This document shows positions 697-14,800 of a DNA stretch of 26,273 nt, one piece after another; within the stretch, counting starts at the first letter, position 1; each line of letters opens with the position of its first letter. Both the position numbers and the translations under genes were made by a program. This DNA comes from a virus, in IMG/VR virus record IMGVR_UViG_3300030104_000046, positions 3,208-29,480 of that record; one strand, 5' to 3'. Under the pieces are notes generated by a model that searched no databases, was not told where the DNA came from, and saw only the letters and a list, made by a program, of their open reading frames with translations.

Positions 697-971
697 GAAA
701 AAAAATAAATTATAAATTTAACGAAGGTAAAATATTAAATTTAGCAAAAGAATATATTGATAGTACTTATGCTCAACATTATTCTAATGGTAAGTATCAA
801 GCTACTGATATGATTATAGATGCTGGACATGGTGAGGGTTTTGCTGTTGGTAACATTATGAAGTATGCTATGCGATATGGTAAGAAAGATAACAAACAAG
901 CAGAACTATATAAGATAATACACTATGCTATTATTGCTTTATATTTAGAGGAGAAAAATGGTAGAAGATAA
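693..971 (+). CDS. DUF3310-like small phage protein
   Basis: A 92-aa protein resembling DUF3310, common in tailed-phage replication modules and sometimes labelled a nucleotide-kinase-like protein without firm biochemical support. The matching part is the C-terminal half: EGFAVGNIMKYAMRYGKK followed by a helix ending in YAIIALYLEE, which fits the family pattern GNxxKYxxRxGxK then a helical Leu/Tyr segment. I place the start at 693, where ATGA overlaps the endonuclease stop and the AAGGA at 678-682 is at usable spacing. An in-frame ATG at 684 (three residues longer) would leave almost no spacing. The 3' end overlaps nrdA by 14 bases. Confidence 0.75.
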   Translation: MRKKINYKFNEGKILNLAKEYIDSTYAQHYSNGKYQATDMIIDAGHGEGFAVGNIMKYAMRYGKKDNKQAELYKIIHYAIIALYLEEKNGRR

Positions 972-2853
972 AGTAGGAACTAAAGATTATTTAGGTATAA
1001 CTATTGACTATGACAAAGAAAAAAACTTTGACAAGTTTAGTTTAGACACATTAAAAGATAGATACTTCTGGGATGGAGAGACACATGCCCAAGAAGCATT
1101 CGCAAGAGCATCAGTATTTGGTGCAACATTTAAAGGAGAAACAGATTATGAAATGGCTCAAAGACTTTATAACTACAGTTCCGATTGTTGGTTCATGTTT
1201 AGCACTCCTATACTTAGCAACGGAGGCACTACTCGTGGGTTACCTATCAGTTGTTTCCTTAATTATGTTCCTGACAGTAGGACTGGGCTATCTGCTCACT
1301 ATGACGAAAACATATGGTTGGCAAGTTCAGGTGGAGGCATTGGTGGATTTTGGGGAGATGTTAGGAGTAATGGTATACCTACTACTCATGGCAGTCGTTC
1401 TACTGGTTCAATTCCATTCATGCATGTTGTAGATTCGCAGATGTTAGCTTTCAATCAAGGCACTACAAGACGTGGTTCTTATGCTGCTTACATGGATGTT
1501 AGTCATCCAGAGATTGAAGAATTTATTAACATGAGAAAAGAATCTGGTGGTGACATAAACAGGAAGTGTTTAAACTTACACAATGGTATTAACATAACTA
1601 ATGCATTCTTAGATGCTGTTAAGAATGATGAAGACTGGAGATTAATTGACCCTAAAACTAATGAAGCTGTTAATACTATAAATGCTAGAGCTTTATGGTT
1701 TCAAATTATAAATGCTAGGGCAGAAACTGGTGAACCTTACATGATTAATATTGATACTTGTAATGAACATTTACCAAAGACACAAAAAGATTTAGGGTTA
1801 TCAATTAGACAAAGTAATTTATGTTCAGAGATAACACTTGCTACCAATGAAGAAAGAACAGCAGTATGTTGTTTATCATCTGTTAATTTAGAACACTTTG
1901 ATAAGTGGTCAAAAGACTCACAGTTTATTGAAGATTTAATAACTATGCTTGACAATGTGATAGAACATTATATTGAGAATGCAGTAGACACATCACAATT
2001 AGGAGGCTATAGTGCAAATTTTAAACGGTTTACAAAATATATTAAAGAAGGTAAAGAAGGATACGCAAAGTCTGCTTACTCTGCTTATAGAGAAAGGTCA
2101 GTTGGTCTTGGAGCAATGGGTTTCCATGCTTATCTCCAGTCTCAAGACATTGCATTTGAAAGTATCTATGCTACTGGATTCAATCATAAAGCATTTAAAC
2201 ACATCAAATCCAAAGCTGTTCAAGCTACTGAAAGACTTGCTGATGTGCGTGGTGAATGCCCTGATTTACACAATACAAACCGTAGGAATGCTCATCTCCT
2301 TGCTATTGCTCCTAATGCTAGTAGTGGGATTATTTGTTCTGGTACTTCTCCCAGCATTGAGCCTTTTCGTGCTAATGTATATACCCACAAAACTTTATCA
2401 GGTTCTTACCAAGTCAGAAACAAATTTTTAGTTAAACTTTTAAAATCAAAAGGTTTAAAAGGTAAAGAGTTAGAACAAACTTTAAAAGATATATCAGGTA
2501 ATGATGGGTCAGTTGAAGATTTATGTATGCTTACAGATGCAGAGAAAGAAGTATTTAAAACTGCTAATGAGATAAATCAGATATGGGTAGTCGAACATGC
2601 TTACAAAAGACAAGAGTTTATTTGTCAAGCACAATCAGTTAATCTATTTTTTACTTTACCAAAAGCAACAGAAGACCAAGATATACATGATGAGTATATG
2701 CAATATGTAAATGATGTGCATTGGTATGGTATGAATAAATTAAAATCGCTGTATTACTTTAGGTCTAATGCAGCAAGAAACGTAGAGAATGTTAACATTA
2801 AAGTTCCAAGGATTCGTTTAGATGAAGTGGACTGTATAGCCTGTGAGGGATAA
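958..2853 (+). CDS. nrdA: Ribonucleoside-diphosphate reductase, large (alpha) subunit
   Basis: A 631-aa class I ribonucleotide reductase alpha subunit, which converts ribonucleotides to deoxyribonucleotides for phage DNA synthesis. Catalytic residues are visible: thiyl-radical Cys289 between Asn287 and Glu291 in SNLCSEITL; the redox pair Cys99 (LPISC) and Cys304 (CCLSSVNL); the radical-transfer pair Tyr599-Tyr600 (SLYYFRS); and C-terminal shuttle cysteines Cys626 and Cys629 (DCIACEG). It is shorter than E. coli NrdA (761 aa) because the N-terminal ATP-cone is missing: residue 1 lies near the start of the catalytic core. GAGGAG just upstream is a good ribosome binding site. The stop overlaps the next start as TAATG. 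It should pair with NrdB at 3986. Confidence 0.97.
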   Translation: MVEDKVGTKDYLGITIDYDKEKNFDKFSLDTLKDRYFWDGETHAQEAFARASVFGATFKGETDYEMAQRLYNYSSDCWFMFSTPILSNGGTTRGLPISCFLNYVPDSRTGLSAHYDENIWLASSGGGIGGFWGDVRSNGIPTTHGSRSTGSIPFMHVVDSQMLAFNQGTTRRGSYAAYMDVSHPEIEEFINMRKESGGDINRKCLNLHNGINITNAFLDAVKNDEDWRLIDPKTNEAVNTINARALWFQIINARAETGEPYMINIDTCNEHLPKTQKDLGLSIRQSNLCSEITLATNEERTAVCCLSSVNLEHFDKWSKDSQFIEDLITMLDNVIEHYIENAVDTSQLGGYSANFKRFTKYIKEGKEGYAKSAYSAYRERSVGLGAMGFHAYLQSQDIAFESIYATGFNHKAFKHIKSKAVQATERLADVRGECPDLHNTNRRNAHLLAIAPNASSGIICSGTSPSIEPFRANVYTHKTLSGSYQVRNKFLVKLLKSKGLKGKELEQTLKDISGNDGSVEDLCMLTDAEKEVFKTANEINQIWVVEHAYKRQEFICQAQSVNLFFTLPKATEDQDIHDEYMQYVNDVHWYGMNKLKSLYYFRSNAARNVENVNIKVPRIRLDEVDCIACEG

Positions 2854-3113
2854 TGAAAAAATATATACACGTCAATCAACATAAAATTAGAGCTAATAAA
2901 AAGAATGGAACTAATGAACCTGTTATAACTATAAAGGAAGGTAGAACTAATACTTACTGTCACGAAGTAAAAGTATTAGGAGAATGTACAATTAAATATG
3001 GTGGTAGTGATAAACCTATTTTACCATGTGGTGCAAGAGTTGTTATTGAAACTATTGCTGATTATGAAATAATAAAACCAGATAATTATGTGGAGGCAGA
3101 ATGCAAGATATAA
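2853..3113 (+). CDS. Small conserved phage protein between nrdA and nrdB, function unknown
   Basis: An 86-aa protein predicted to be mostly beta strand, with an N-terminal IHVNQHKIRANKK block and a C-terminal LPCGARVVIET block. I recall similar short proteins in marine phages near nucleotide-metabolism genes, but know no function. It has three cysteines (in TYCHE, GECT and LPCGA) plus one near the end. The start is set by TAATG overlap with the nrdA stop and a GAGGGA ribosome binding site. The 3' end overlaps the oxygenase gene by 13 bases. Position in the operon suggests a link to ribonucleotide reduction (inference). Confidence 0.8.
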   Translation: MKKYIHVNQHKIRANKKNGTNEPVITIKEGRTNTYCHEVKVLGECTIKYGGSDKPILPCGARVVIETIADYEIIKPDNYVEAECKI

Positions 3114-3790
3114 AAGTACAAGTGCATTCTTTACCTGCTGTTGTAATGCTAGAAGCACAGCTACCAGATAGTATGATAAAAAGTTTAAATAAATATTTAG
3201 ATAAATTATATAAAAGTAAAAAAAGAAAATCATTAGCTGGTACTTTGGTTGGTCAAATACATAGAGGTCAACAATTATTAATGGACCATAAAGACCCTGT
3301 ACTAGAAGAATACTATAAATTTATTACAAACATGGCAGTTAATTATTTAGATGTTTATAATAATATAACAGGTACAAGACATACTGGTAAGATGATAGAC
3401 ATAGATGAGCTATGGTCTGTTCATAGTTATGAGGGAGACTATAATCCTATCCATGACCATGGAACTAAAACTCTTATGGGAATTAGTACAACTACATGGA
3501 CTAAAGTTCCTGAACAAATAGGAAAGCAAGGAGAGAATCCTTTAGAAAGCTATGACTTGTATAATAGTTCAGGTGCATGTGATGGATTTCTTGCTTTTAA
3601 TTATGGAAGAAATAGTTTAATGGATTCTGAAAGATTAAGACCATCACAATCAGTAGTAATGCAACCTAAAGTTGGGAGACAACTTATGTTTCCATCATGG
3701 TTACAGCATATGGTATATCCTTTTTTTGGTGAAGGAGAACGTAGAACTGTAGCTGCTAATCTAAATTGTTTTAATAAGGAGGAAGAATGA
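3101..3790 (+). CDS. Putative 2-oxoglutarate/Fe(II)-dependent oxygenase
   Basis: A 229-aa protein resembling the phage 2OG-Fe(II) oxygenases of the 2OG-FeII_Oxy_5 type. The facial triad is plausible: His118/His120 in NPIHDHG, then His203 in SWLQHMVYPF, with Arg214 or Arg215 in GEGERRTVAANL to bind the 2-oxoglutarate carboxylate. The N-terminal half is helical and charged. The substrate is unknown. Members in marine T4-like phages have been suggested to modify proteins or nucleotides, and this copy sits between nrdA and nrdB, which need iron. GGAGG before the ATG is a strong ribosome binding site, and the stop overlaps the next start as ATGA. Family assignment is fairly secure, the role is not. 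Confidence 0.82.
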   Translation: MQDIKVQVHSLPAVVMLEAQLPDSMIKSLNKYLDKLYKSKKRKSLAGTLVGQIHRGQQLLMDHKDPVLEEYYKFITNMAVNYLDVYNNITGTRHTGKMIDIDELWSVHSYEGDYNPIHDHGTKTLMGISTTTWTKVPEQIGKQGENPLESYDLYNSSGACDGFLAFNYGRNSLMDSERLRPSQSVVMQPKVGRQLMFPSWLQHMVYPFFGEGERRTVAANLNCFNKEEE

Positions 3791-4005
3791 TAAAACAAAA
3801 ATTATATAATGCTTTACGCTTAAAGTATGAAGCAGAAAGGGCAGAAGCTGAAACTAATCTGTTAAATTATTTTAAAAATAGTGTTGGTGTTGCTGAACAT
3901 CCTAACATTATTGAAACAATGGATATGGAAATAGATAAGTTAGCAACTGCAGAAGATAAACTTGCAACATTAAAGGGGAATTTCGATGAGTTTACTTGGG
4001 AATAG
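3787..4005 (+). CDS. Small helical protein, function unknown
   Basis: A 72-aa protein that is almost wholly charged and helical, with a likely coiled coil (residues about 10-35 and 45-70) separated by the turn VGVAEHPN. No domain is recognised. It starts at an ATGA overlap with the oxygenase stop, with AAGGAGGAAGA as a strong ribosome binding site, and runs 20 bases into nrdB, so translation of the two is probably coupled. The junctions at both ends make it very likely a real gene. Confidence 0.75.
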   Translation: MIKQKLYNALRLKYEAERAEAETNLLNYFKNSVGVAEHPNIIETMDMEIDKLATAEDKLATLKGNFDEFTWE

Positions 4006-4960
4006 AGATTATTATAAACCGTTTGAATATCCATGGATGTTTGATTACTATGTATTACAGAATCAAATGCATTGGATGCCAGAGTCTGTGCCTTTACATA
4101 CAGATGTAAAAGACTGGCAAGAACTTACAGACACAGAAAAGAATTTACTAACACAGATATTTAGATTGTTTACTCAATCGGATGTCGATGTGGCTAGTGG
4201 TTATATAGATAAGTATATGCCTATCTTTAAAAAACCGGAAGCAAGAATGATGATGTCTTCTTTTGCTAACATGGAATCAATCCATCAACATGCTTACAGT
4301 TTACTACTTGATACTGTTGGTATGCCTGAGATAGAATATAAAGCATTCGCTGACTACGAAGAAATGGCAGACAAGCATGACTATGTTGGAAACTTTAAAC
4401 CTAGTAAAGCTAAAAAAGAAACCATAGCAAAAACTCTTGCTGTTTATTCTGCTTTTACTGAGGGACTACAACTCTTTAGTAGCTTTGCAATCCTGTTAAA
4501 CTTTCCAAGGTTCGGTAAAATGAAAGGTATGGGACAAATAGTTACGTATTCTATTCGTGATGAGTCTATGCACGTTGAAGCTATGACTAAATTATTTAGA
4601 GAGTTTATTAAAGAAAACATGGATATATGGACAGATGATTTTAAGAAAGAACTATATGACATCTGTAGAGAGATGGTAACATTAGAAGATAAGTTTTTAG
4701 ATTTAGTATTTGCAATGGGAGATATACAAGGACTAACTAAAAAAGATATGTATGCTTACAATAGATACATAGCTGATAGAAGATTACTACAACTTGGTTT
4801 AAAAACTAATTATGACCAAAGAGAAAATCCTTTAGGTTGGATTGATGAAGTAACTGGTGTCGAACATCAAAACTTTTTTGAAGGTCGTGCCACTACTTAT
4901 ATGAAAGCTGGACTTAGAGGTAGACAAGACAACATAACTTTTACAGGATTTGAAGAATGA
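3986..4960 (+). CDS. nrdB: Ribonucleoside-diphosphate reductase, small (beta) subunit
   Basis: A 324-aa class I ribonucleotide reductase beta subunit that holds the radical for NrdA. The metal ligands of the E. coli type are present: Asp66 (QSDVD), Glu97 and His100 (MESIHQHAY), Glu159 (FTEGLQLF), and Glu193 and His196 (RDESMH). Tyr104, seven residues after Glu97, is in the place of the radical tyrosine (E. coli Tyr122), so a standard di-iron tyrosyl-radical enzyme is expected. The C-terminal tail (NITFTGFEE) is the usual flexible peptide that docks on NrdA. AAGGGG lies 8 bases before the ATG. The small unknown gene before it overlaps by 20 bases and the one after by 4. Confidence 0.97.
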   Translation: MSLLGNRDYYKPFEYPWMFDYYVLQNQMHWMPESVPLHTDVKDWQELTDTEKNLLTQIFRLFTQSDVDVASGYIDKYMPIFKKPEARMMMSSFANMESIHQHAYSLLLDTVGMPEIEYKAFADYEEMADKHDYVGNFKPSKAKKETIAKTLAVYSAFTEGLQLFSSFAILLNFPRFGKMKGMGQIVTYSIRDESMHVEAMTKLFREFIKENMDIWTDDFKKELYDICREMVTLEDKFLDLVFAMGDIQGLTKKDMYAYNRYIADRRLLQLGLKTNYDQRENPLGWIDEVTGVEHQNFFEGRATTYMKAGLRGRQDNITFTGFEE

Positions 4961-5304: not shown

Positions 5305-5718
5305 TTAGCTAGATATACGTATCTTTTTAGGTTTTTCTTCTTCTGGAATGTTTTTTTCCAGTTCAATCACCAAGATACCATCAACAACTACTGCATCTTT
5401 TACTTCAACATACTCTGCTAAAGCAAATGTTTTAGTGAAGTCTTTTTCAGATATACCTTTATGGATATATTCTACTCCTTTCTTCTCATCTGTTTGTACA
5501 GCAGATACAGTAAGTGTTTTATCTTTAACCTCAACATCAATGTCTTCGACTTTAAATCCTGCCATTGCTATTTCGATTCGATATGCCTCACCTGATTTAA
5601 CTATGTTATAAGGTGGGTAGTTTGTTTGAGGTATTGATGCTCTTTGAAGTGTATCAAAGATTTCATCAAACCCAACTGAGAACGGACTGAATTGTCCAAA
5701 TGCTTTTAAATGTGTCAT
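5305..5718 (-). CDS. Small heat-shock protein, IbpA type (alpha-crystallin domain)
   Basis: A 137-aa class A small heat-shock protein, an ATP-independent holdase that keeps unfolding proteins soluble. It closely resembles IbpA/IbpB: GFDEIFDTL (16-24), YPPYNI (34-39), alpha-crystallin domain about 35-125 with AMAGF (51-55) and the DGIL turn (113-116), then a C-terminal IxI motif (Ile133-Arg-Ile135) used in oligomer assembly. The length is the same as E. coli IbpA. Small heat-shock genes are common in marine cyanophages and T4-like phages, where help in virion assembly or host stress control has been proposed. AAGGAG at usable spacing is the ribosome binding site. It is the last gene of the minus-strand block and, unlike its neighbours, has its own apparent promoter at 5777-5805. 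Confidence 0.95.
   Translation of the reverse strand: MTHLKAFGQFSPFSVGFDEIFDTLQRASIPQTNYPPYNIVKSGEAYRIEIAMAGFKVEDIDVEVKDKTLTVSAVQTDEKKGVEYIHKGISEKDFTKTFALAEYVEVKDAVVVDGILVIELEKNIPEEEKPKKIRISS
5311..5328 (+). terminator. Possible weak intrinsic terminator for the plus-strand operon
   Basis: AGATA (5311-5315), loop TACG (5316-5319) and TATCT (5320-5324), followed by further T to 5328. The loop is of UNCG type but the stem is short and AT-only, so this is a weak candidate. It lies inside the last codons of hsp20 on the opposite strand, about 130 bases past the final plus-strand stop. The TAGCTA hairpin just before it may help. Confidence 0.3.
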
Positions 5719-5776: not shown

Positions 5777-5805
5777 ATTATAGAGTCTTATTCAGGTTTT
5801 GTCAA
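5777..5805 (-). promoter_or_regulatory. Consensus sigma-70 promoter for hsp20
   Basis: Minus strand: TTGACA (5805-5800), exactly 17 bases of spacer, then TATAAT (5782-5777). Both hexamers match the sigma-70 consensus at all positions and the spacing is optimal. The -35 element lies inside the last codons of the adenylate cyclase gene. Predicted start of transcription is about 5770, giving a leader of roughly 50 bases to the hsp20 ATG at 5718. I found no comparable site elsewhere in the minus-strand block. It would be read by host RNA polymerase. Confidence 0.75.
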
Positions 5806-7548
5806 GTCTATTGTAGTATATATTTCTACTGGCTCTGCTATTCCTTTCATTGCTATTGGGTCTAGTTTAATTAAAGGTATGTCTGTTTGTTGTGCAGTAT
5901 TCTTAGCAATAACTATATCCTCTCCTACTTCTTTACAACTACTCTCACATCTAGCTGCAAGGTTTACATCTGAACCTATAGCAGTATAATCAAACCTATC
6001 TTCACTTCCACAGTTCCCAAGCATAACTATCCCAGAATTAATTCCTATACCAATTTCAATACCTAAGTCTGCCTCTTGCATCTTTTCTTTTATTTCTATA
6101 GCTGTAAGAATTGCTCTGTCCTCATGCATGTCTAAGTCTATTGGTGCATTAAAGATAGCCATCATCGCATCACCTATATATTTATCAACCATACCACCAT
6201 ACTTCTTAACTGCATTAGCTTGTATGGTTAATGTCTTGTTCATTAACTCTGTTACTTCTTCTGGTTCTAATTGTTCTGATAAGTTTGTAAAGCCTCTGAC
6301 ATCAGTAAACAACATGGTACAATACTTTCTTTCACCGCCTAGTTTTAAAGATTCTGGATTGTCTTGTAATTGTTTTACTTGTCTTGGGTCAAGGTAATGA
6401 CCAAACTGTTTCTTGATTTGTTGTCTAAGTTTATATTGTTCTCTGAATCTTAAATAGAATTGTTGTAATGACAAAAGTGTCATACATGTCATACTCCATG
6501 TGACATCAACTAAAAAGCCTCGTGATATTAAATAGTAACCGAGCCCACCCATCGACAGTATCAGCGTACCTGCCAATGATGCACCCATAGTAATACCAAA
6601 ATGATTTATCACGAAGACGATTAATAATCCTGAAATGCATAATAAAATAAGTTCTATAAATAATCTATAATCTGGAATTTGAGGAGAGTCTATTAAAATA
6701 CTTTCGGCTAAAGCTGCCTGTATCTTATGAGGTTCTAATAGTCCCTTTGGTGTAGCTAACTGTGGCATTACACCAGCAGCAGTCACGCCAACAAAAACAA
6801 ATGTACCTTCGACATCCATTTCTTCCAATGTTGTTTGTTTTGTATCTACCCAACTAATCCACTTCCTACCTAAACTGTCTGTACTAATTGGTGGTAGACC
6901 TCTAGCTCTTATCATCTCTATACCATTTTCGTTGGTCTTTATCTGATAAGTATTAGCACCAGCTAAAGTCTTTAATACTTCTGTACCAAAAGCAGCAACC
7001 CAACCATCAGGTGTTTGCTGTAGTAGTGGTAATCTTCTTACAAGGTTATCAACATCTACTGGAGCAGACACAGCACCTTGCGTAGCTGAATTACTTAAAG
7101 GTCTTATATTCTGTAAGAATCCTTTTGCTTTTGGTAAGTCTACATCTGGTCCAAGAATAACAGTACCATGAGTTTCTGGGTACATACCATTGTCAAACTC
7201 TGGCATAGCTAATACACTTGGAGCATAGCTTAATACATCAGAGAATATTTTATCACCACCAAACCTGTCATCCTGTGGAAATAATATTACCCAACCAACA
7301 CCTAATGCACCTTCGTTAAGTAAATCAATATGAATACTTGCTAAGTCTTGACGAGGAAAAGGATAGCCACCTTTAAGTTGTACATCTTCTTCTGTAATAT
7401 TTAATATAGTAAAATGACCTGAAGGTTCTGGTGTTTGTACTAAAGCATCAAAGGTTTTTAGTCTTAGTATTTCTAACGGTGCAAAATTAAACAACAAAGG
7501 TAATGTTAATAACCCTAGTAATAAACTTGCGTACTTTATATTAGTCAT
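5788..7548 (-). CDS. CHASE2-domain class III adenylate cyclase
   Basis: A 586-aa membrane-bound nucleotide cyclase. Order: N-terminal membrane anchor (about 6-23), extracytoplasmic CHASE2 sensor domain (about 28-290), three transmembrane helices (about 297-315, 320-341, 348-365), a short linker (FREQYKLRQQIKKQFGHYL), and a class III catalytic domain (about 405-580). Catalytic residues are complete: metal ligands Asp416 (LFTDVRGFT) and Asp460 (KYIGDAMM), adenine-selecting Lys456 and Thr522 (FDYTAIG), and transition-state Asn529 and Arg533 (VNLAAR). Lys plus Thr favours ATP over GTP. So it should make cAMP in the cytoplasm in response to a periplasmic or membrane cue. The start overlaps the fecR-like stop by 8 bases. 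In bacteria this CHASE2-cyclase often sits beside FecR proteins, as here. It is very unusual for a phage. Confidence 0.95.
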   Translation of the reverse strand: MTNIKYASLLLGLLTLPLLFNFAPLEILRLKTFDALVQTPEPSGHFTILNITEEDVQLKGGYPFPRQDLASIHIDLLNEGALGVGWVILFPQDDRFGGDKIFSDVLSYAPSVLAMPEFDNGMYPETHGTVILGPDVDLPKAKGFLQNIRPLSNSATQGAVSAPVDVDNLVRRLPLLQQTPDGWVAAFGTEVLKTLAGANTYQIKTNENGIEMIRARGLPPISTDSLGRKWISWVDTKQTTLEEMDVEGTFVFVGVTAAGVMPQLATPKGLLEPHKIQAALAESILIDSPQIPDYRLFIELILLCISGLLIVFVINHFGITMGASLAGTLILSMGGLGYYLISRGFLVDVTWSMTCMTLLSLQQFYLRFREQYKLRQQIKKQFGHYLDPRQVKQLQDNPESLKLGGERKYCTMLFTDVRGFTNLSEQLEPEEVTELMNKTLTIQANAVKKYGGMVDKYIGDAMMAIFNAPIDLDMHEDRAILTAIEIKEKMQEADLGIEIGIGINSGIVMLGNCGSEDRFDYTAIGSDVNLAARCESSCKEVGEDIVIAKNTAQQTDIPLIKLDPIAMKGIAEPVEIYTTIDLTKPE

Positions 7549-8650
7549 TTTGTTTTATTGTTATAGTCGATGAGCTACCACCGTTTACTATAATTTGTGT
7601 GCTCTTACCGTTTTGTACTAAGATAACCGTATAAGCATTATTTTTATCTAAATCTACTCTTACTGTATTTTCTAATGCTCTAATAAAAGTTATAGTATTA
7701 TCTGTAGTAAAAGTATTTATTTGTGTATCAGGGTCAAACCCTAATATTGTACCTTTTAAATCTAAACTAGCTTGAAGTAAAGTTTCAGTTTGGTCAAGCT
7801 CATTAACATCTTGTATAATGTCAAGCAAGTCCTCTAAAAAATTCACGTCAAGGTAATTTATATCTAGCTCTGTAAATTCTAAATCATCACTAGCTAAATA
7901 GTCTATATCCAAGTCCTCAAACTCAAGATAGTCAACATCAAGTAAGTTATTACTACCACTTGACACACTTTTCTCAGTAACATTTATATTCTCCTTTGGC
8001 GGATTGACAATCAACATGTTGTCTATTAGTTCAAGTGTTATATCTAATATTACAGGTTTAGTAGGTTCAGTTTCAAACATAGAAACTGTAGTAGCTTGAT
8101 AAGGTTGATTAAGTATAACCTCACCTACAGCAGTAGCAACAACTATCTCACCACTAGGAGTACCATCATCTTTTGGTAATAGTATAATTAAACTTTCACC
8201 CAGTTCATTGACTGTGATTGTAAAATCTGTACCACGAATTGATACGTTAGCACTTGGAGTACTAATAGCAATGTTTTCTTTATTAATAGTATTTAATTTA
8301 CCAGTAATAAATCTTGCTGTCCCACTTGCAAACTGCAAAGCCATCTTTGACTTTGATGGGTCAGGGTCGTAGATAAACTCATCAATGAGTAACTGTGAGT
8401 GCTCTGTTAATCTAACCTTAGTATCATTAAGAAATGTTATACCAATCCTACCATTAGTAGTCTCAACATTATCATAACTTTCAATACCAAAAGACAAGGC
8501 AGCATCATAAGGTTTATCCCTTACAATCCTGCCTGTTCCTTTAAATTCTGTTACGCTTCCAATATTAGCATCCGACTGCTGTGCCACCATCGTCTTGGAT
8601 AACACAAACAGTACCAGAATCGCCATTTGAAATAATCTTGAGCCAATCAC
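7541..8650 (-). CDS. FecR-domain periplasmic protein with acidic C-terminal repeat
   Basis: A 369-aa exported protein. It has a signal peptide (hydrophobic MAILVLFVLSK at 9-19, likely cleavage after Ala23), a FecR domain (about 30-185, with typical FLNDTKVRLTEHSQL and NVSIRGTDFTITV blocks), then a strikingly acidic segment (237-275) of repeated D-x-x-Y-L units, and a beta-rich tail (300-369). Classical FecR is an inner-membrane anti-sigma regulator, but this protein has no membrane helix after the signal peptide and belongs to the FecR plus CHASE2-cyclase type. It could be the ligand or partner of the CHASE2 sensor encoded next (inference from the 8-base overlap). The start is GTG at 8650, since an in-frame TAG lies two codons upstream and the ATG at 8626 gives a poor signal peptide. 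This forces an 86-base overlap with the curlin gene. Confidence 0.85.
   Translation of the reverse strand: MIGSRLFQMAILVLFVLSKTMVAQQSDANIGSVTEFKGTGRIVRDKPYDAALSFGIESYDNVETTNGRIGITFLNDTKVRLTEHSQLLIDEFIYDPDPSKSKMALQFASGTARFITGKLNTINKENIAISTPSANVSIRGTDFTITVNELGESLIILLPKDDGTPSGEIVVATAVGEVILNQPYQATTVSMFETEPTKPVILDITLELIDNMLIVNPPKENINVTEKSVSSGSNNLLDVDYLEFEDLDIDYLASDDLEFTELDINYLDVNFLEDLLDIIQDVNELDQTETLLQASLDLKGTILGFDPDTQINTFTTDNTITFIRALENTVRVDLDKNNAYTVILVQNGKSTQIIVNGGSSSTITIKQND
7826..7942 (-). repeat. Acidic D-x-x-Y-L repeat coding region in the FecR-like gene
   Basis: Codes for about 39 residues with repeated units LDVDYLEFED, LDIDYLASDD, LEFTELDINYL and LDVNFLED, spaced 9-12 residues apart. Nearly half the residues are Asp or Glu. 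The alternation of hydrophobic and acidic residues suggests stacked beta strands or a calcium-binding surface (inference). Confidence 0.6.
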
Positions 8651-9278
8651 TTGCTAAAGTACTCTGTTGTTGTATATTAAAGGTTCTTAAACTACCTGTT
8701 TGGTCTAAATAAAAATAACCATTAGCATAGCCATCACCATCATAAGTTACAGTATTACTATCTCCATCTATATCTACAAAGGAAGTAGCACCATCAACAT
8801 CTATATCAAATGTTAAAGTATTGCTACTACCATTGATAATCCAATCTAAATCTGTATTACTTGCTATAGCATTTGTAGCTAAATCCAAGTTAAATGTGTT
8901 ACTGTCACCAGTAGCTTGAACATTTAGATTAGAACCATCAGCACCGTAAGTATTAGTAGGGTCAACTTGAATAGTAAATGCATTTGAATTACCATCAAAA
9001 TTAAAATAACCAACAATATTATCTCCTAGTATATCACCAAGAAATGTATTACTGTCACCTATTTGATTTAATATTAAATCCAAAGTATTACCATCCAAAT
9101 CTAATGGAGTTAGACTTCCAGCAGTAGAGTCAAGCCCACCTATAATGTTGCCTGAACCAAGTTGCTCTAAATCTATATTAGCAGTATCACCTGATTGGTC
9201 TATATATATTTCGTTGTCAGCCCCGTACAATGATACATTCAACATCATTGCAAGGGTCAATAATTTTAATATTTTCAT
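8565..9278 (-). CDS. Curlin-like secreted amyloid subunit
   Basis: A 237-aa secreted protein built of curlin-type repeats. The signal peptide runs to about Ala20 (NVSLYGA). The mature part opens with IYIDQSGDTANIDLEQLGSG, close in style to CsgA/CsgB repeats, and the G-x-S-N signature recurs at 41-44 (GSGN), 74-77, 96-99, 124-127, 150-153, 172-175 and 219-222 (GDSG), each followed by alternating hydrophobic beta residues. Spacing is 22-33 residues, looser than the roughly 22 of E. coli CsgA. It is rich in Asp, Asn and Thr. Two cysteines lie at the end (225 and 237). It would be the fibre subunit exported through CsgG. It overlaps csgG by 62 bases and fecR by 86. Whether it is CsgA-like or CsgB-like cannot be told. 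Confidence 0.85.
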   Translation of the reverse strand: MKILKLLTLAMMLNVSLYGADNEIYIDQSGDTANIDLEQLGSGNIIGGLDSTAGSLTPLDLDGNTLDLILNQIGDSNTFLGDILGDNIVGYFNFDGNSNAFTIQVDPTNTYGADGSNLNVQATGDSNTFNLDLATNAIASNTDLDWIINGSSNTLTFDIDVDGATSFVDIDGDSNTVTYDGDGYANGYFYLDQTGSLRTFNIQQQSTLASDWLKIISNGDSGTVCVIQDDGGTAVGC

Positions 9279-10065
9279 ATTCCCAATACCCTCTTTCTAT
9301 TCCTATTTCTATTAAATTAAAAACTGCTGTCTCTACTGCCTTTTGCAAAGCAATAGAGCCAACCTCGTTCTCAGCGATGCCTCCTTCTATTTCTACTAGT
9401 TCAGTACCAGCTTCAATAAATCGGAAGACATCTTGAGATACACTTGTTGATAAAACATTTTTAGATACCGTAGTCTCTAATAATATTTCACCAGTTGACA
9501 CAGAAACTAATCGTAATGATATAGTTACTACGTCTTCTCGGTATTGTTTCGTGTTACCTATTCCTAAGTAACGTGCCCCAATACCACCAGATTGAATGTT
9601 TGTATCATAACTTATAACTCCACCTTGTACTATAAGACCAGCAAATAGTAAGGGTTGTAGTTTTAAGTCTTCCTCAAAGTTCTCTCTGGTTGACCGGATT
9701 AGTTGTCGTTCTTTGGTAAGATTATCTAACCCTACCCTTTCAACAACTCTAAAAAATTCACCATTAGCAGCATGTTTTAAAGCTCTAATAAGCAATGCTT
9801 CTGGAGCTTGAGTAACTGCTGTACTAAATAAAGCAAAGCTACTATTACTTTTTCTTTGCCCTGTTAAGTCTTGAAAACTGTTAGCATATACTGCTATAAT
9901 TGGTTTAATTTTTGCAGGAGGTAAATCAGCTAACTCTTGAGATTGTAAATCTAATACGTTAGCAGGTTCTATATTTTGTGTTAAAACTAAATCTGTATTC
10001 TTACTTAATACTGCACAACCACTAAAAGCTAAAATCGCCAATAGGCAACTCAATAATTGTTTCAT
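9217..10065 (-). CDS. csgG: Curli secretion channel lipoprotein CsgG
   Basis: A 282-aa homologue of CsgG, the nonameric outer-membrane lipoprotein pore of type VIII secretion. The lipoprotein signal is MKQLL...AFSGC, with the lipidated cysteine at 17. Strong family blocks follow: STAVTQAPEALLIRALK (81-97), FFRVVERVGLDNL (104-116), QSGGIGARYLGIG (158-170), LRLVSVSTGEIL (185-196), SVSQDVFRFIE (208-218) and ERGYWEYEN (257-265). The length is like E. coli CsgG (277). Against my memory of E. coli CsgG, the constriction loop keeps the Phe (Phe80, E. coli Phe56) but not Tyr51 or Asn55. The open frame extends to a TTG at 10083, but the ATG at 10065 gives a normal lipoprotein signal and is preferred. 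It overlaps csgF by 44 bases and the curlin gene by 62. Confidence 0.94.
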   Translation of the reverse strand: MKQLLSCLLAILAFSGCAVLSKNTDLVLTQNIEPANVLDLQSQELADLPPAKIKPIIAVYANSFQDLTGQRKSNSSFALFSTAVTQAPEALLIRALKHAANGEFFRVVERVGLDNLTKERQLIRSTRENFEEDLKLQPLLFAGLIVQGGVISYDTNIQSGGIGARYLGIGNTKQYREDVVTISLRLVSVSTGEILLETTVSKNVLSTSVSQDVFRFIEAGTELVEIEGGIAENEVGSIALQKAVETAVFNLIEIGIERGYWEYENIKIIDPCNDVECIIVRG

Positions 10066-10489
10066 TCCCATCTGCATCGACAATCCTTAATGTTATAATT
10101 CCATCTTCAATACTATACTCAATAGTATTACCTTCTAATTCTAATATGCCACTTGTACTTGGAGTCTCACCAAATAAATTTTCTACTAGCTGTCTTGATA
10201 GTTGTGCATATATTCTAGACTCTAAGTTTCTTATAAACCTTGCTAGTGTAGTATTCTCTTTATCTCTTTCTATTTGTTCTTGAATAGCTTTTAGTTCTTC
10301 TTTAATAGTCATCTTTCTTGAAAACTCTTGATTCTCTATGGTAAGATAATGTGCAGAAGTACCTATCCCACTAAAACTAGGGTTCTTAAATTGATGTACC
10401 ATCTCATCAGCTTTTATATCTGTTACTGCAAATAATGCTAATAAAAATATACTTACTAATGTTGCCATCTCAATCTTTTCTTTGGTCAT
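10022..10489 (-). CDS. csgF: Curli assembly factor CsgF
   Basis: A 155-aa secreted homologue of CsgF, which in E. coli plugs the outer face of the CsgG pore and presents the nucleator to growing fibres. The signal peptide ends near Ala27. The mature N-terminus contains VHQFKNPSFSG (31-41), matching the family motif FxFxNPxFGG that inserts into the CsgG barrel. A helical region (about 60-105) and a beta-rich C-terminus (about 113-150, ending GDFSF) follow the E. coli domain order. It precedes csgG, as in the bacterial order csgF-csgG. The start at 10489 overlaps the preceding membrane-protein gene by 20 bases. An in-frame ATG at 10468 would avoid the overlap but lose the basic start of the signal peptide. 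Confidence 0.92.
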   Translation of the reverse strand: MTKEKIEMATLVSIFLLALFAVTDIKADEMVHQFKNPSFSGIGTSAHYLTIENQEFSRKMTIKEELKAIQEQIERDKENTTLARFIRNLESRIYAQLSRQLVENLFGETPSTSGILELEGNTIEYSIEDGIITLRIVDADGNETIIELPIGDFSF

Positions 10490-10820
10490 TTCTTTCTGCC
10501 TTTGCTATCTTTTCTATATCAATTAAATTTGGAACACCTACCAAAGTCTTTAACAATACATCTTGTCTAATACTTTGATTGTCCAATGCTCTTACTCTAT
10601 CAATTAAACTTACAATAATACCATATTGACTATCAAGTTTAGTTGACACCCTTTCTTCCATAGTGTCTAATGCAGTTTGTACTTTTTCATCTAGGGTATC
10701 TAGTTTAGTTTCCATACCATCAATAATTCTATTGATAAGTTTCCAAACAAAAATACCTAGTCCTAAAGCTGCTGCAATAGGAAAACCTAATTCAGTTATT
10801 AGTGCTACTGCCGACTCCAT
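10470..10820 (-). CDS. Membrane-anchored coiled-coil protein, possible second holin or lysis regulator
   Basis: A 116-aa protein with one N-terminal membrane helix (about 4-27, LGFPIAAALGLGIFVWKLI) followed by a long charged coiled coil (about 32-85). The short MESAxxLIxxxGFPIA start resembles small BhlA/UviB-type phage holin-like proteins. It is encoded directly after the three-helix holin (TAATG overlap), so a lysis role such as pinholin, antiholin or membrane partner is likely but unproven. No spanin pair (Rz/Rz1 type) is visible nearby, so it could also be a divergent inner-membrane spanin part, although the C-terminus has no outer-membrane anchor. Confidence 0.6.
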   Translation of the reverse strand: MESAVALITELGFPIAAALGLGIFVWKLINRIIDGMETKLDTLDEKVQTALDTMEERVSTKLDSQYGIIVSLIDRVRALDNQSIRQDVLLKTLVGVPNLIDIEKIAKAERNDQRKD

Positions 10821-11290
10821 TAGTCTTGCTTATGTGAAGCCCCAAAGTAAAAAGATATAACAGCACTAGCAAGTCCACCAAGATAACCTAACACTAGGTT
10901 TATTAGAGCCTCACTATTCTGTTCTGGTGGTTGTAAAGTAACTAAAAATATATAGGCTAAAAATCCACCTACTGTGGCTACACCCATAATTCTAGCTGTC
11001 CAATCTTTTGAAAATCTTCCTCTAGCATCTTGAGTATCTGCAACTTCTAGTTTAAATACATCAACATCTAGTTCTTTCATTTGAACTTCAAAAGCTTGTT
11101 CAGCTTTTTTAAGTTCTAGCATTTGTTCAGGTGTTGCTTCTGCTATACCTTTCTCTATTGCTTTAGGATTGTTAGGTACACCTAAAACTTCTGCTATCAT
11201 ATTAGCAGCCATACCACCCATAGGTCCACCTAAAGCAGTACCTAGTGTTGGAGCTACAGCACCTACTACGTTCTTTAATAAATTTTTCAT
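10820..11290 (-). CDS. Three-helix phage holin (GTA_holin_3TM-like)
   Basis: A 156-aa holin candidate of the GTA_holin_3TM type, which makes holes in the inner membrane so that lysozyme reaches the peptidoglycan. It has a Gly/Ala-rich N-terminal hydrophobic stretch (9-37), a charged helix (55-95, ending in the family-like KDWTAR at 95-100), and two clear membrane helices (100-119 and 129-150) with a short loop between. AAGGAT upstream of the ATG is the ribosome binding site and lies inside the preceding 49-aa ORF, whose TGA overlaps this start as ATGA. Lysozyme is encoded just upstream, a typical lysis cassette. Confidence 0.82.
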   Translation of the reverse strand: MKNLLKNVVGAVAPTLGTALGGPMGGMAANMIAEVLGVPNNPKAIEKGIAEATPEQMLELKKAEQAFEVQMKELDVDVFKLEVADTQDARGRFSKDWTARIMGVATVGGFLAYIFLVTLQPPEQNSEALINLVLGYLGGLASAVISFYFGASHKQD

Positions 11291-11436
11291 AATATATCCT
11301 TATATAATATTTCTAATATTTGTTCAAACATGATTCTAAAATCTTGTAGTGTTATAAAAGCCATGTCTTGTTTGACTTGTGTTACCCTATAAAAATGGTA
11401 AGCATCTTCTAATTGCTTTTCAGTATACAGAATCAT
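11287..11436 (-). CDS. Small ORF (49 aa) in the lysis cassette, function unknown
   Basis: An open frame of 49 codons fills the space between lysozyme and holin. It starts at ATG 11436 inside the end of the lysozyme gene (17-base overlap) and ends in a TGA that overlaps the holin ATG as ATGA. The product has QLEDAYHFYRVTQVKQ (8-23) and an Ile/Leu-rich end. It is probably helical with no membrane segment. I have a faint memory of DAYxxYR-type small proteins in marine phages but no function. The ribosome binding site is weak. The exact fit between its neighbours and the ATGA coupling are the main evidence. Confidence 0.6.
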   Translation of the reverse strand: MILYTEKQLEDAYHFYRVTQVKQDMAFITLQDFRIMFEQILEILYKDIL

Positions 11437-11881
11437 TTTGCTGTAATACTAAATCTTGTAGTTCTTTACTACGTCTACCCACTTGACCAAACCAACGACT
11501 GTCTTCCATTTGTCTAGCCATCTCATTCCAATCATGTTTTCTACAAGCTGCTAACATATTTTTAAATTTAGATAATCTTGTACCACCTAAATTAAAACAC
11601 ATATTAACTATGACTCGTTGTATAGCTTCTGGTAAGTTTTTAAAATCTTCCTCACCTACTATATGTATAGCTTCTAATAAATGTTTATTAAAGTCACTAT
11701 CATAATACATATCTACTACTTCTTGAGAAACAGCAGTACCAACTTCCCAAGAATACTCAGGGTCTTCTGGCTGACATAGATGTCCAACACCAAGAGTTTT
11801 ATAGCCTAAACTATCCATGTATATTTCTAACACTTCACCTTCGTGTCTTTTTATTTCAGCTTTACATTGTTCTATGTTCAT
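11420..11881 (-). CDS. T4-type lysozyme (endolysin, GH24)
   Basis: A 153-aa muramidase that cuts peptidoglycan at lysis. The T4 lysozyme catalytic triad is exactly spaced: Glu14 (HEGE), Asp23 (YMDSLGY) and Thr29 (KTLGVGH), corresponding to Glu11, Asp20 and Thr26. Later family blocks include VNMCFNLGG and RWFGQVGRRSKEL. There is no signal peptide or signal-anchor, so it needs a holin for release, consistent with the holin gene that follows. I start at ATG 11881, two bases after the stop of the large virion gene. The open frame reaches 11899, but that would add six residues before the conserved start. Confidence 0.94.
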   Translation of the reverse strand: MNIEQCKAEIKRHEGEVLEIYMDSLGYKTLGVGHLCQPEDPEYSWEVGTAVSQEVVDMYYDSDFNKHLLEAIHIVGEEDFKNLPEAIQRVIVNMCFNLGGTRLSKFKNMLAACRKHDWNEMARQMEDSRWFGQVGRRSKELQDLVLQQNDSVY

Positions 11882-11883
11882 AA

Positions 11884-14800
11884 TTAATTTACTCCCCATA
11901 TTTTTTTAGCTTGTTTTATTGTAGCATCATTATATGATTTTTCTTTAGATGATAATGTATGATGATTATATAAATAAGCATTCATAGAAGCCTCTTTATT
12001 ACCTTCAAATAAAGCTGGTGTCAAATATCTATCACTACCCTCTGATTCAAAAATATTAGAAAGGAATAATGCATCTTGAATACTTTCCGATACAACAGAA
12101 GAATCATTACTATTTAAAATAGATTGAAATATTTTTGATTGTTCACCTGTAAAAAATCTATTAGTTGCTCTGTTATAAGCTGTCGGTACACTTCCTTCTA
12201 AAAATTGATAATAACCTGAAGCAGAACTTTTTAATTTATTTTTTCCTCTAGCTAAATTTTTATTTTTACTTTCAGCAAACTTAGTATTATCTATTAATAC
12301 TTGTGCATTACGTTTAAATGTATCATAAGAAACATTTTTGTATTCTGGATTATCTTTAATTAAACGAGCATACTCTATTTGTAATACAACATCATTTAAG
12401 TCTTTATTAGCTTTACCACCTTTAACTAATCCAAGTCTAGCCATCTGGTCAGAGTAAGGTGCTCCTGTAAAAGGGTCTACTCTGTCTGCTGCATTTTCTT
12501 TAGTATAAGGAACTTCTGGTCCTGATACTAAGCCACCTGTTACAAAATTTTCTCTAAGTTCATCACGAAGTTCCTTTAAATCTTCTTTTTGTTGTTTATA
12601 ATTATCTGGGTCAACTAATATTGGTAAATTACTAAAGTTTCTATCAATTTCATCTATTATTTGTAATAAATCTACGTATTCTGCAACACTATTAGTTGAG
12701 TCTAATAATTTTTGTTTAGTTCCATCAGTTAAACCTATAGGATTAAAAGATGGTCTTCCTACAAAAGATGCTATATCTATTTCACTCATACCAGCTTCTT
12801 TCATTAAATTTAAAGTATCTAAATTAAAATGATTAGCAGATTTATTTATTTTGTGAAACTTAGAATATTGTTTATAATATTTTTGATTTTCTTCTAAATA
12901 TCTATTAGTAAATTTATCTATATTTAAAGGTCTTGTAATTGAATCGTTTATTCTTGTTCTTCTTTTACCTTTATCTCTTACAATTTGAAAAACTTTCATT
13001 TTATAAATATTTTCTTTATATTCATCATTAAGAGGCATAGCACCCCAACCTGTTAAATATTTTAAAAATTGTTGTGTTGGATAAATATCTTGGTCCCATT
13101 CTGTTTTTTCTTTTCCTATAGTATCTATATAATCTACTCCTCTTGTTATAGTAGCAGGAGTTATAGCTTCTAAAAGATTACTAGATAAAATAGTTAAATT
13201 ATCTATATTCATCCAATTGTCTATTAATGTTCCACTATCATCATATTTTTGAGTTTTATCAAAAGCATTACGAATTAATTTACCATTTATATCTCTACCA
13301 TTTCTAATAATATAATTACTTAATTGTTCTTGTATAATAGATTCACCTAAAAATGGCGAAACAGTTTCTGTAAGAGTTGTTGTTAAAATATCTTTTATAA
13401 TATTTTCATCGTCTAATATAGGTTCTGATAAAGCTTTATTTATAATAATTTGAAATGGTTTTTTAGGAAAATCGTAAGCATCCCAAGAACTTAAATTAGA
13501 TATCATAGGTGTACCATCATCTGACAAAGTTACAATAACTTTTGAATTTTGCATATAATCAGGTTGAAAATCTTTAGCTGCTTCTAAATCTTCTTTACCA
13601 AAACCTGTAACTGTTTGATAACCTTTTTCAGCGACATCTGCACCTGCTCCTGCTACAGCAGTAAATGAACCTAATCTTTTTAATCCTCTATTTCTTATAA
13701 TTTTTCCAGCTTCTGTATCACCATTTTTAATTATTTGATTTCCTGAATTAACTTCTTTAATTCCTCTATATAAACTGTTAGTTGTAATTCTTACTGATTC
13801 TGACATAAAAGAAAAGAACCTACCAAAAAAAGGAGTTCTTCTTAAATCTTGTAAAAGTTCTGGAACTAAATCATAGTTAGGTAAAACATCTCTTACCATT
13901 CTAGCTGCTCTATCTTTAATTTCATTATCAGTTAATTTTAACGGTGAATTTTCTGGTAAAGCATTATTAAACTTTTTTAAATATTCTTGCTCTCTAAAAT
14001 ACATATTAATCTTAAAAAAATCATCTTCTGCTACATATGTTTTTTGTGCTCCTGATGCTATTTTTTTAATTGATGTAGACTTGAATTTTTTATTTTTTAA
14101 AGATATATAAGGAATAACTTCTCTTCCAAACACCCAATCAAGACCACCTAAAACTTTTCCTTTTGGTAAACTATCTACATCTTTTGCTAATCCTAATAAC
14201 TCTCTAGCTACTACACCTTTATTTAATAATCCTCTACCTGAAAGTTCTTCATGTAGTTGTTGTAATTCTTCATTATTACTTGTTCTAGCTTTTAATATAT
14301 TTTTAATTTTTAAAGTTTCTTTTACAGAAAAAACATTAACACCATTAGCTAATGACATTTGAACTCCACCCATAATATTTTTAATATGAGTAGCATGAGA
14401 CCAAACTGTTTTAGCTGCTTGAGATAAACCTTTTAAAACTACCATTCCTCTCCAAGCAGTATTATTTTCTAACATAGTTTGACCCATTCTTTTATAATCA
14501 CTAAAGTATCTTAACATTTCTGGAGTTGTATGCAAACCTGATAACTTACCAAACCCTTGAGGTATTACTTCGTTAAAGATTCCTTCTTTTTGTTCTCTAA
14601 AATATATACCTAAACCATCTTGATAAGCTTCTTGATAAAATTTATTATCTTCAATTAATCTACTTAATTTTGTAGTTGAGCTAATAAGTTTTTGAATAGG
14701 GTCTGTTACTTCACCAAGTAAATTTTTGATTTCTGTCGGTATTACTTTTTTACCTTTTAATATTTGTGTTCTTAATTTATCAAACTTATTTAAATTAGAT

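What the first reader, a model, noticed from the sequence alone, without database searches (positions are those of the whole stretch)
7541..10489. Phage-borne curli (type VIII secretion) locus: csgF, csgG, curlin-like subunit, FecR-like protein
Four adjacent genes code for a CsgF with FKNPSF, a lipidated CsgG with all main family blocks, a signal-peptide-bearing curlin-repeat protein and a FecR-domain protein. Frames are intact and signal peptides present, so the locus looks functional. Curli genes are not a normal part of a T7-like phage. I recall reports of similar clusters in uncultivated pelagiphages, so the class is probably known, but its purpose is not: SAR11 hosts are thought to lack curli.
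Basis: partly seen in the sequence, partly recalled or inferred. Interest (0 to 1): 0.9.

Follow-up and report, generated by a model that had tools for sequence, protein, structure and literature searches.

The report
Curli-secretion operon in a marine phage
A marine phage, probably infecting SAR11 bacteria, carries a complete set of genes for secreting curli-like protein fibres; such phage operons were reported in 2020-2022, but here the same operon is found in a further phage lineage and in three bacterial genomes, and one of its genes appears to have been misnamed.

Summary
CsgF, CsgG, a curlin-like protein and a FecR-domain protein are intact at 7541-10489 (minus strand). The operon is larger than described: a small membrane protein ("TMcc", 10470-10820) precedes csgF and a CHASE2-adenylate cyclase (5788-7548) follows FecR. 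The class is published (Zaragoza-Solas 2020; Wittmers 2022; Buchholz 2022). The phage is not T7-like but an HTVC103P relative, a lineage for which I found no curli report.

New here: (1) Among 107 phage CsgG clusters, curlin, FecR, cyclase, CsgF and TMcc are present wherever flanks allow a test (87/87, 77/77, 27/27, 100/100, 90/90), which argues against a pore-only role. (2) Three Caulobacterales metagenome-assembled genomes carry csgF-csgG-curlin-FecR-cyclase in the same order, so FecR and cyclase are not phage additions, contrary to Wittmers. (3) TMcc is absent from those bacteria, matches no histidine-kinase family and also occurs in curli-free phage lysis regions; it probably is the published "histidine kinase". 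(4) FecR is a secreted signalling domain, not an iron regulator. (5) Sampled Pelagibacterales lack class III cyclases and mostly lack cAMP-receptor domains.

Best explanation: a working curlin secretion system with a periplasmic sensor. Purpose unproven.

The parts
10470..10820 (-). TMcc: 116-aa protein, one N-terminal TM helix plus coiled coil; phage-specific member of the module, directly before csgF
   Evidence: Present upstream of CsgG in 90/90 testable clusters; TM segment 3-33; no kinase family in Pfam up to E=1; alignment; also in csg-free loci beside a holin-like gene
10022..10489 (-). CsgF, curli outer-membrane/extracellular accessory protein with FKNPSF motif
   Evidence: PF10614 9e-18; aligned with E. 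coli CsgF; profile matches solved CsgF 6.6e-46
9217..10083 (-). CsgG, lipoprotein pore subunit (frame opens at a TTG; ATG at 10065 is a likely start)
   Evidence: PF03783 2.8e-50; solved CsgG 2.4e-45; tree
8565..9278 (-). Curlin-like secreted repeat protein, 237 aa
   Evidence: Conserved Q-x-G and G-x-x-N positions; AlphaFold2 beta repeat pLDDT 86.7; profile match to 8c50 1.4e-6
7541..8650 (-). FecR-domain protein with N-terminal signal-like segment; periplasmic signalling domain only
   Evidence: PF04773 7.5e-10; model matches FecR/PupR-type domains 2e-5 to 1e-4; alignment
5788..7548 (-).
   Evidence: PF05226 2.3e-23 and PF00211 1.4e-18; D416 K456 D460 D520 N529 R533
10820..11290 (-). Neighbour, not part of the conserved module: holin-like membrane protein
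   Evidence: Similar to unnamed phage proteins and one annotated holin; two TM segments; beside the module in only 29/87 clusters
11420..11899 (-). Neighbour: endolysin (lysozyme family)
   Evidence: PF00959 1.3e-7; phrog_7 endolysin 3.2e-16
5305..5718 (-). Neighbour: Hsp20, also present at this place in csg-free HTVC103P
   Evidence: PF00011 8.9e-19; HTVC103P order

Best explanation
This is a complete phage-carried curlin secretion operon of a FecR/cyclase type also present in some Caulobacterales. Host Sec would export CsgF, CsgG, curlin and FecR. CsgG forms the outer-membrane pore and CsgF caps it; curlin passes out and assembles into beta-repeat fibres on the infected cell. FecR, in the periplasm, reports secretion or envelope state to the CHASE2 domain of the cyclase, which makes cAMP. 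TMcc is a phage-specific inner-membrane partner, recruited from a lysis cassette. In this lineage the operon follows the endolysin and a holin-like gene, so it is probably expressed late, and the fibre most likely changes how the infected cell or its debris sticks to other cells. Shown: gene content, order, conserved residues, co-retention, purifying selection. Inferred: secretion, fibre formation, timing, signalling partners and purpose.
For: Co-retention per CsgG 95% cluster: curlin 87/87, FecR 77/77, cyclase 27/27, CsgF 100/100, TMcc 90/90, against 29/87 for the neighbouring holin-like gene. Module genes are under purifying selection, median dN/dS 0.14-0.27. The curlin model is a confident beta repeat and its profile matches a solved curlin-repeat protein. 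The CsgF motif is kept. Cyclase catalytic residues are intact. Bacterial operons with the same order exist in L104, L105 and L106, with ordinary metabolic neighbours where checked (L104, L106). FecR with CHASE2 cyclase is a described pairing in Campylobacterota (PMC9239204). Wittmers 2022 reports expression of phage curli genes in metatranscriptomes (PMC9599517).
Against: No clumping was seen in cultures infected by Melnitz, which carries the module (PMC9004378). CsgE is absent from ten phage records, so gating is unexplained. The curlin model has no significant fold match in the PDB and its single-protein Pfam match is below cut-off. The presumed host order has no class III cyclase (0/97) and a cNMP-binding domain in only 6/97, five of them in 870-aa frames; twelve phage records have none, so no receptor for cAMP is known. 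In myophages the module is not beside lysis genes, so late timing may not be general.
Confidence: 0.55

Rival explanations
1. Lysis device: CsgG (with or without CsgF) acts as a pinholin-like or secretin-like pore that sets the time of lysis (Buchholz 2022).
For: In this lineage the operon directly follows endolysin and a holin-like gene; TMcc also occurs beside a holin-like gene in csg-free loci.
Against: Curlin, FecR and cyclase are retained in every testable cluster, which a lysis pore does not need; lysis neighbours are not conserved (29/87) and are absent near the myophage modules. CsgG is an outer-membrane lipoprotein family, whereas pinholins act in the inner membrane. The published premise that Melnitz lacks curlin genes conflicts with its own record.
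Confidence: 0.12
2. Superinfection exclusion: the same secretion system works, but the fibre or pore masks receptors against competing phages.
For: Proposed by Wittmers 2022 (PMC9599517); compatible with all module data; fits lack of visible clumping in Melnitz culture.
Against: In this lineage the operon is at the end of the late (lysis) region, whereas exclusion would be useful earlier; no direct test.
Confidence: 0.15
3. Uptake pore: an ungated CsgG channel lets nutrients or cofactors in, with curlin incidental.
For: CsgE gate is absent; suggested by earlier authors (PMC7029224, PMC9599517).
Against: Unbroken retention of curlin (87/87) under purifying selection; FecR here is not the iron-citrate regulator.
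Confidence: 0.06
4. Mainly a signalling device: the operon is kept for cAMP production by FecR/CHASE2-cyclase, and curlin secretion is the sensed process.
For: Cyclase catalytic residues conserved in nearly all of 90 sequences; cyclase in 27/27 clusters.
Against: No cAMP receptor found in phage records and few cNMP-binding domains in the presumed host order.
Confidence: 0.1

Closest known systems
Phage T8SS (curli) modules of HTVC023P-type podophages and pelagimyophages such as HTVC008M (Wittmers 2022, PMC9599517; Zaragoza-Solas 2020, PMC7029224)
   Same: Order small membrane protein(s)-csgF-csgG-curlin-FecR-cyclase; CsgE absent; marine phages of SAR11 type
   Different: Different phage lineage (HTVC103P-like); one curlin gene instead of two; module lies behind endolysin and a holin-like gene and before Hsp20
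Curli module of methylophage Melnitz (PMC9004378)
   Same: TMcc x2, csgF, csgG, curlin-repeat genes, FecR, cyclase
   Different: Myophage of OM43; cyclase has Ser at two catalytic positions; the paper states no csgA/csgB although the record lists two curlin-repeat genes
Caulobacterales operons in L104, L105 (Caulobacteraceae MAGs) and L106 (Hyphomonas sp. TMED17)
   Same: csgF-csgG-curlin-FecR-CHASE2/cyclase in the same order and strand; CsgG in one clade with phage CsgG, 100/99
   Different: No TMcc; module 50-53% G+C; larger or duplicated curlin
E. coli csgBAC/csgDEFG curli system
   Same: CsgG (41% identity) and CsgF pore parts, curlin-type repeat
   Different: No CsgE found; FecR and cyclase present; longer, irregular curlin repeats
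CHASE2-cyclase/FecR signalling clusters of Campylobacterota (PMC9239204)
   Same: FecR-domain envelope protein paired with a CHASE2 adenylate cyclase
   Different: Described with a phosphodiesterase and a TPR protein; no curli genes mentioned

Membership tests
Curli / type VIII secretion system | CsgG outer-membrane lipoprotein | tested here: met
   PF03783 2.8e-50; solved CsgG 2.4e-45; lipobox
Curli / type VIII secretion system | CsgF with the conserved N-terminal motif | tested here: met
   PF10614 9e-18; FKNPSF aligned with E. coli FRNPNF
Curli / type VIII secretion system | Secreted curlin-repeat subunit | tested here: met
   Family profile matches 8c50 at 1.4e-6; repeat residues invariant; single-protein Pfam match below cut-off
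Curli / type VIII secretion system | CsgE periplasmic gate | tested here: not met
   PF10627 in 0/10 phage records, control found in E. coli; described as helpful but not essential in PMC7029224, so this does not exclude membership
Curli / type VIII secretion system | Extracellular amyloid fibre formed | not testable with these tools
   Needs expression and microscopy
Pelagiphage T8SS module (Wittmers 2022) | Conserved order csgF-csgG-curlin-FecR-cyclase in a phage genome | tested here: met
Pelagiphage T8SS module (Wittmers 2022) | Histidine kinase upstream of csgF, as annotated there | tested here: not met
   The upstream gene (116 aa, one TM helix, coiled coil) has no kinase match in Pfam up to E=1 in ten members; read as a misannotation in the paper, not as a difference in gene content
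FecR iron-citrate anti-sigma regulator | Cytoplasmic anti-sigma region next to a sigma factor gene | tested here: not met
   Starts with a signal-like hydrophobic segment, periplasmic domain only; no sigma factor in the module
T7-like (Autographiviridae) phage | T7-type structural genes | tested here: not met
   Portal, capsid and tail-region genes match HTVC103P; that group has HMO-2011-type morphogenesis (PMC8528129)
Class III adenylate cyclase | Two metal Asp, Lys/Asp specificity pair, Asn, Arg | tested here: met
   D416, K456, D460, D520, N529, R533

The most novel reading that the evidence does not exclude
The module is a secretion-coupled sensor shared as a whole with bacteria: the FecR protein monitors curlin in the periplasm and drives cAMP through the CHASE2 cyclase in a host with no class III cyclase of its own, while TMcc, a former lysis-cassette protein, ties fibre secretion to the moment of lysis. 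A phage would thus introduce both a surface fibre and a new second messenger.
Probability: 0.15. Interest if true: 0.8.

Novelty: new member of a known kind. Interest (0 to 1): 0.5.

Why it matters
Phage curli operons are reported as widespread in the ocean and are unexplained. Retention of curlin, FecR and cyclase in every testable cluster tells experimenters to look for a secreted fibre and for cAMP, not for an empty pore. The Caulobacterales relatives show that FecR and cyclase belong to a bacterial curli operon type, in which the circuit could be tested. TMcc is the one part seen only in phages, so it is the place to look for what the phage adds.

Tried and rejected
Assembly chimera at 10.5-11.3 kb: rejected, the junction recurs in many contigs. 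Histidine kinase upstream of csgF: rejected, no kinase family. T7-like assignment: rejected. Close DNA relatives among deposited phages: none by megablast. Significant PDB fold match of the curlin model: none. CRP-type route for cAMP: little support. Phage monophyly of CsgG: neither shown nor rejected (AU p 0.19), so the direction of transfer between phages and Caulobacterales is left open. Rfam search of the window: nothing. A Salmonella 'phage' hit, OR851715, was set aside as probable host sequence. Paper searches for FecR with CHASE2 and curli together: none.

Full report
What is there. The window is 26,273 bases of a 29,480-base virus record. Between a large internal virion-type protein and an Hsp20 gene, all on the minus strand, lie an endolysin (11420-11899), a holin-like protein (10820-11290), a 116-aa membrane protein here called TMcc (10470-10820), CsgF (10022-10489), CsgG (9217-10083), a curlin-like protein (8565-9278), a FecR-domain protein (7541-8650) and a CHASE2-adenylate cyclase (5788-7548). 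The open frames overlap or touch from the holin-like gene to the cyclase. Pfam confirms CsgF, CsgG, FecR, CHASE2 and cyclase domains.

The curlin protein. Its Pfam match is weak (0.062), so membership was tested by other means. Across 42 relatives the residues Q28, G30, Q39, G41 and N44 are invariant and G-x-S-N turns recur. AlphaFold2 gives a confident beta-repeat model (pLDDT 86.7, pTM 0.84). The family profile matches one solved curlin-associated repeat protein, 8c50, at 1.4e-6. Foldseek against the PDB gave no significant match, which is a reservation.

Which phage. DNA polymerase is about 50% identical to pelagiphages HTVC103P, HTVC104P and HTVC115P. In a 53.5-kb relative with 99% identical CsgG, portal, capsid, primase and several tail-region genes match HTVC103P. 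HTVC103P-type phages carry HMO-2011-type morphogenesis genes (PMC8528129), so 'T7-like' is wrong. In HTVC103P, Hsp20 lies 75 bases from the large protein gene with no csg genes between, which looks like the empty site; this is a comparison of position. I found no paper in the searched library linking HTVC103P-type phages with curli, but the uncultured contigs used by Wittmers may have included some.

Conservation. Three viral scans gave 229 loci with CsgG, in 107 clusters at 95% identity. Where enough flank exists, curlin is present in 87/87 clusters, FecR in 77/77, cyclase in 27/27, CsgF in 100/100 and TMcc in 90/90, but the holin-like gene only in 29/87 (per-locus counts, where one locus of 57 lacks a cyclase match). 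Median dN/dS against the window: TMcc 0.14, CsgF 0.17, CsgG 0.19, curlin 0.27, FecR 0.14, cyclase 0.21. The loci were gathered by similarity to CsgG or TMcc, so they describe relatives of this module and not all phages.

Bacterial relatives. Of 80 bacterial-genome loci nearest to phage CsgG, three carry csgF-csgG-curlin-FecR-cyclase in the same order without TMcc: L104 and L105 (Caulobacteraceae MAGs) and L106 (Hyphomonas sp. TMED17, 705-kb contig). The neighbours checked in L104 and L106 are ordinary metabolic genes. G+C of the module is slightly below the flanks in all three. TMcc has no match in these three genomes. Phage CsgG plus these three form one clade (100/99) apart from other bacterial CsgG; the bacterial ones fall inside it, but phage monophyly is not rejected (AU p 0.19). 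So either a bacterial operon of this type was the source, or bacteria received it from phages. In both cases the statement that FecR and cyclase are not in bacterial T8SS operons (PMC9599517) needs correction. All three genomes are metagenome-assembled. Other loci titled as bacteria look like phage: L107 has T4-type clamp loader and processivity genes; L108, L109 and L129 are short contigs judged only by module type and low G+C.

TMcc. Wittmers reports one or two 'histidine kinases' always before csgF. In these data the gene in that place is TMcc, one copy in podophages, two in most myophages. Ten members show no kinase match in Pfam up to E=1. TMcc also occurs in six loci without csg genes, five of them beside a holin-like gene (L283-L286, L300; L307 lacks one); a seventh, L274, ends shortly after TMcc. 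That the published 'HK' is TMcc is inferred from position.

FecR and cyclase. The FecR model matches solved FecR/PupR-type signalling domains (E 2e-5 to 1e-4), but the protein begins with a signal-like segment and lacks the cytoplasmic part. FecR with CHASE2 cyclase is a described pairing in Campylobacterota (PMC9239204), and some sampled relatives of L106 have a FecR-like gene next to such a cyclase. The cyclase keeps its catalytic residues. Sampled Pelagibacterales had no class III cyclase (0/97; other cyclase classes not tested) and few cNMP-binding domains (6/97, five in 870-aa frames). Twelve phage records had none. The target of cAMP is therefore unknown.

Mechanism and rivals. The unbroken retention of curlin argues against pore-only roles. 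Buchholz's premise that Melnitz lacks curlin genes conflicts with its GenBank record, although the absence of clumping in that culture speaks against simple aggregation. Purpose (adhesion, aggregation, exclusion) cannot be decided from sequence.

Noticed in passing
window 958-2853 and 3986-4960 (+): Frames that read as ribonucleotide reductase large and small subunits (by eye), near a 2OG-Fe(II) oxygenase (3101-3790) and an endonuclease (259-696), which PHROGs confirm.
   Followed up: partly
window 21908-26272 (-): Very long tail-fibre-like protein of repeated N-T-A-V-G-x-x-A-L units with a C-terminal region resembling an intramolecular chaperone (by eye).
   Followed up: no
L107 1-20867: A 121-kb contig filed as a Sphingobacteriales MAG is a T4-like phage with the curli module followed by Hsp20 and an endolysin: probable mis-binning.
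   Followed up: yes
L109, and G015:C45:11358-11851: A 'Candidatus Pelagibacter' MAG holds a 3-kb curli-module contig that looks like phage and, on another contig, weak TMcc-like matches.
   Followed up: partly
L232-L248: In a myophage subgroup a TMcc copy lies between csgF and csgG, which suggests a functional tie to the pore.
   Followed up: no
L084 9673-11724: The Melnitz cyclase has Ser at the specificity Asp and at the Asn position, so it may be inactive or altered.
   Followed up: no
phage record OR851715.1: A 1,499-base record named Salmonella phage S.Kent 1-2-1 matches csgG; probable host sequence deposited as phage.
   Followed up: no
window 7541-8650, C-terminus of the FecR protein: Conserved end N-G-G-x-x-S-x-I-x-I-x-Q recalls a curlin half-repeat; could be a docking or nucleating segment.
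   Followed up: partly
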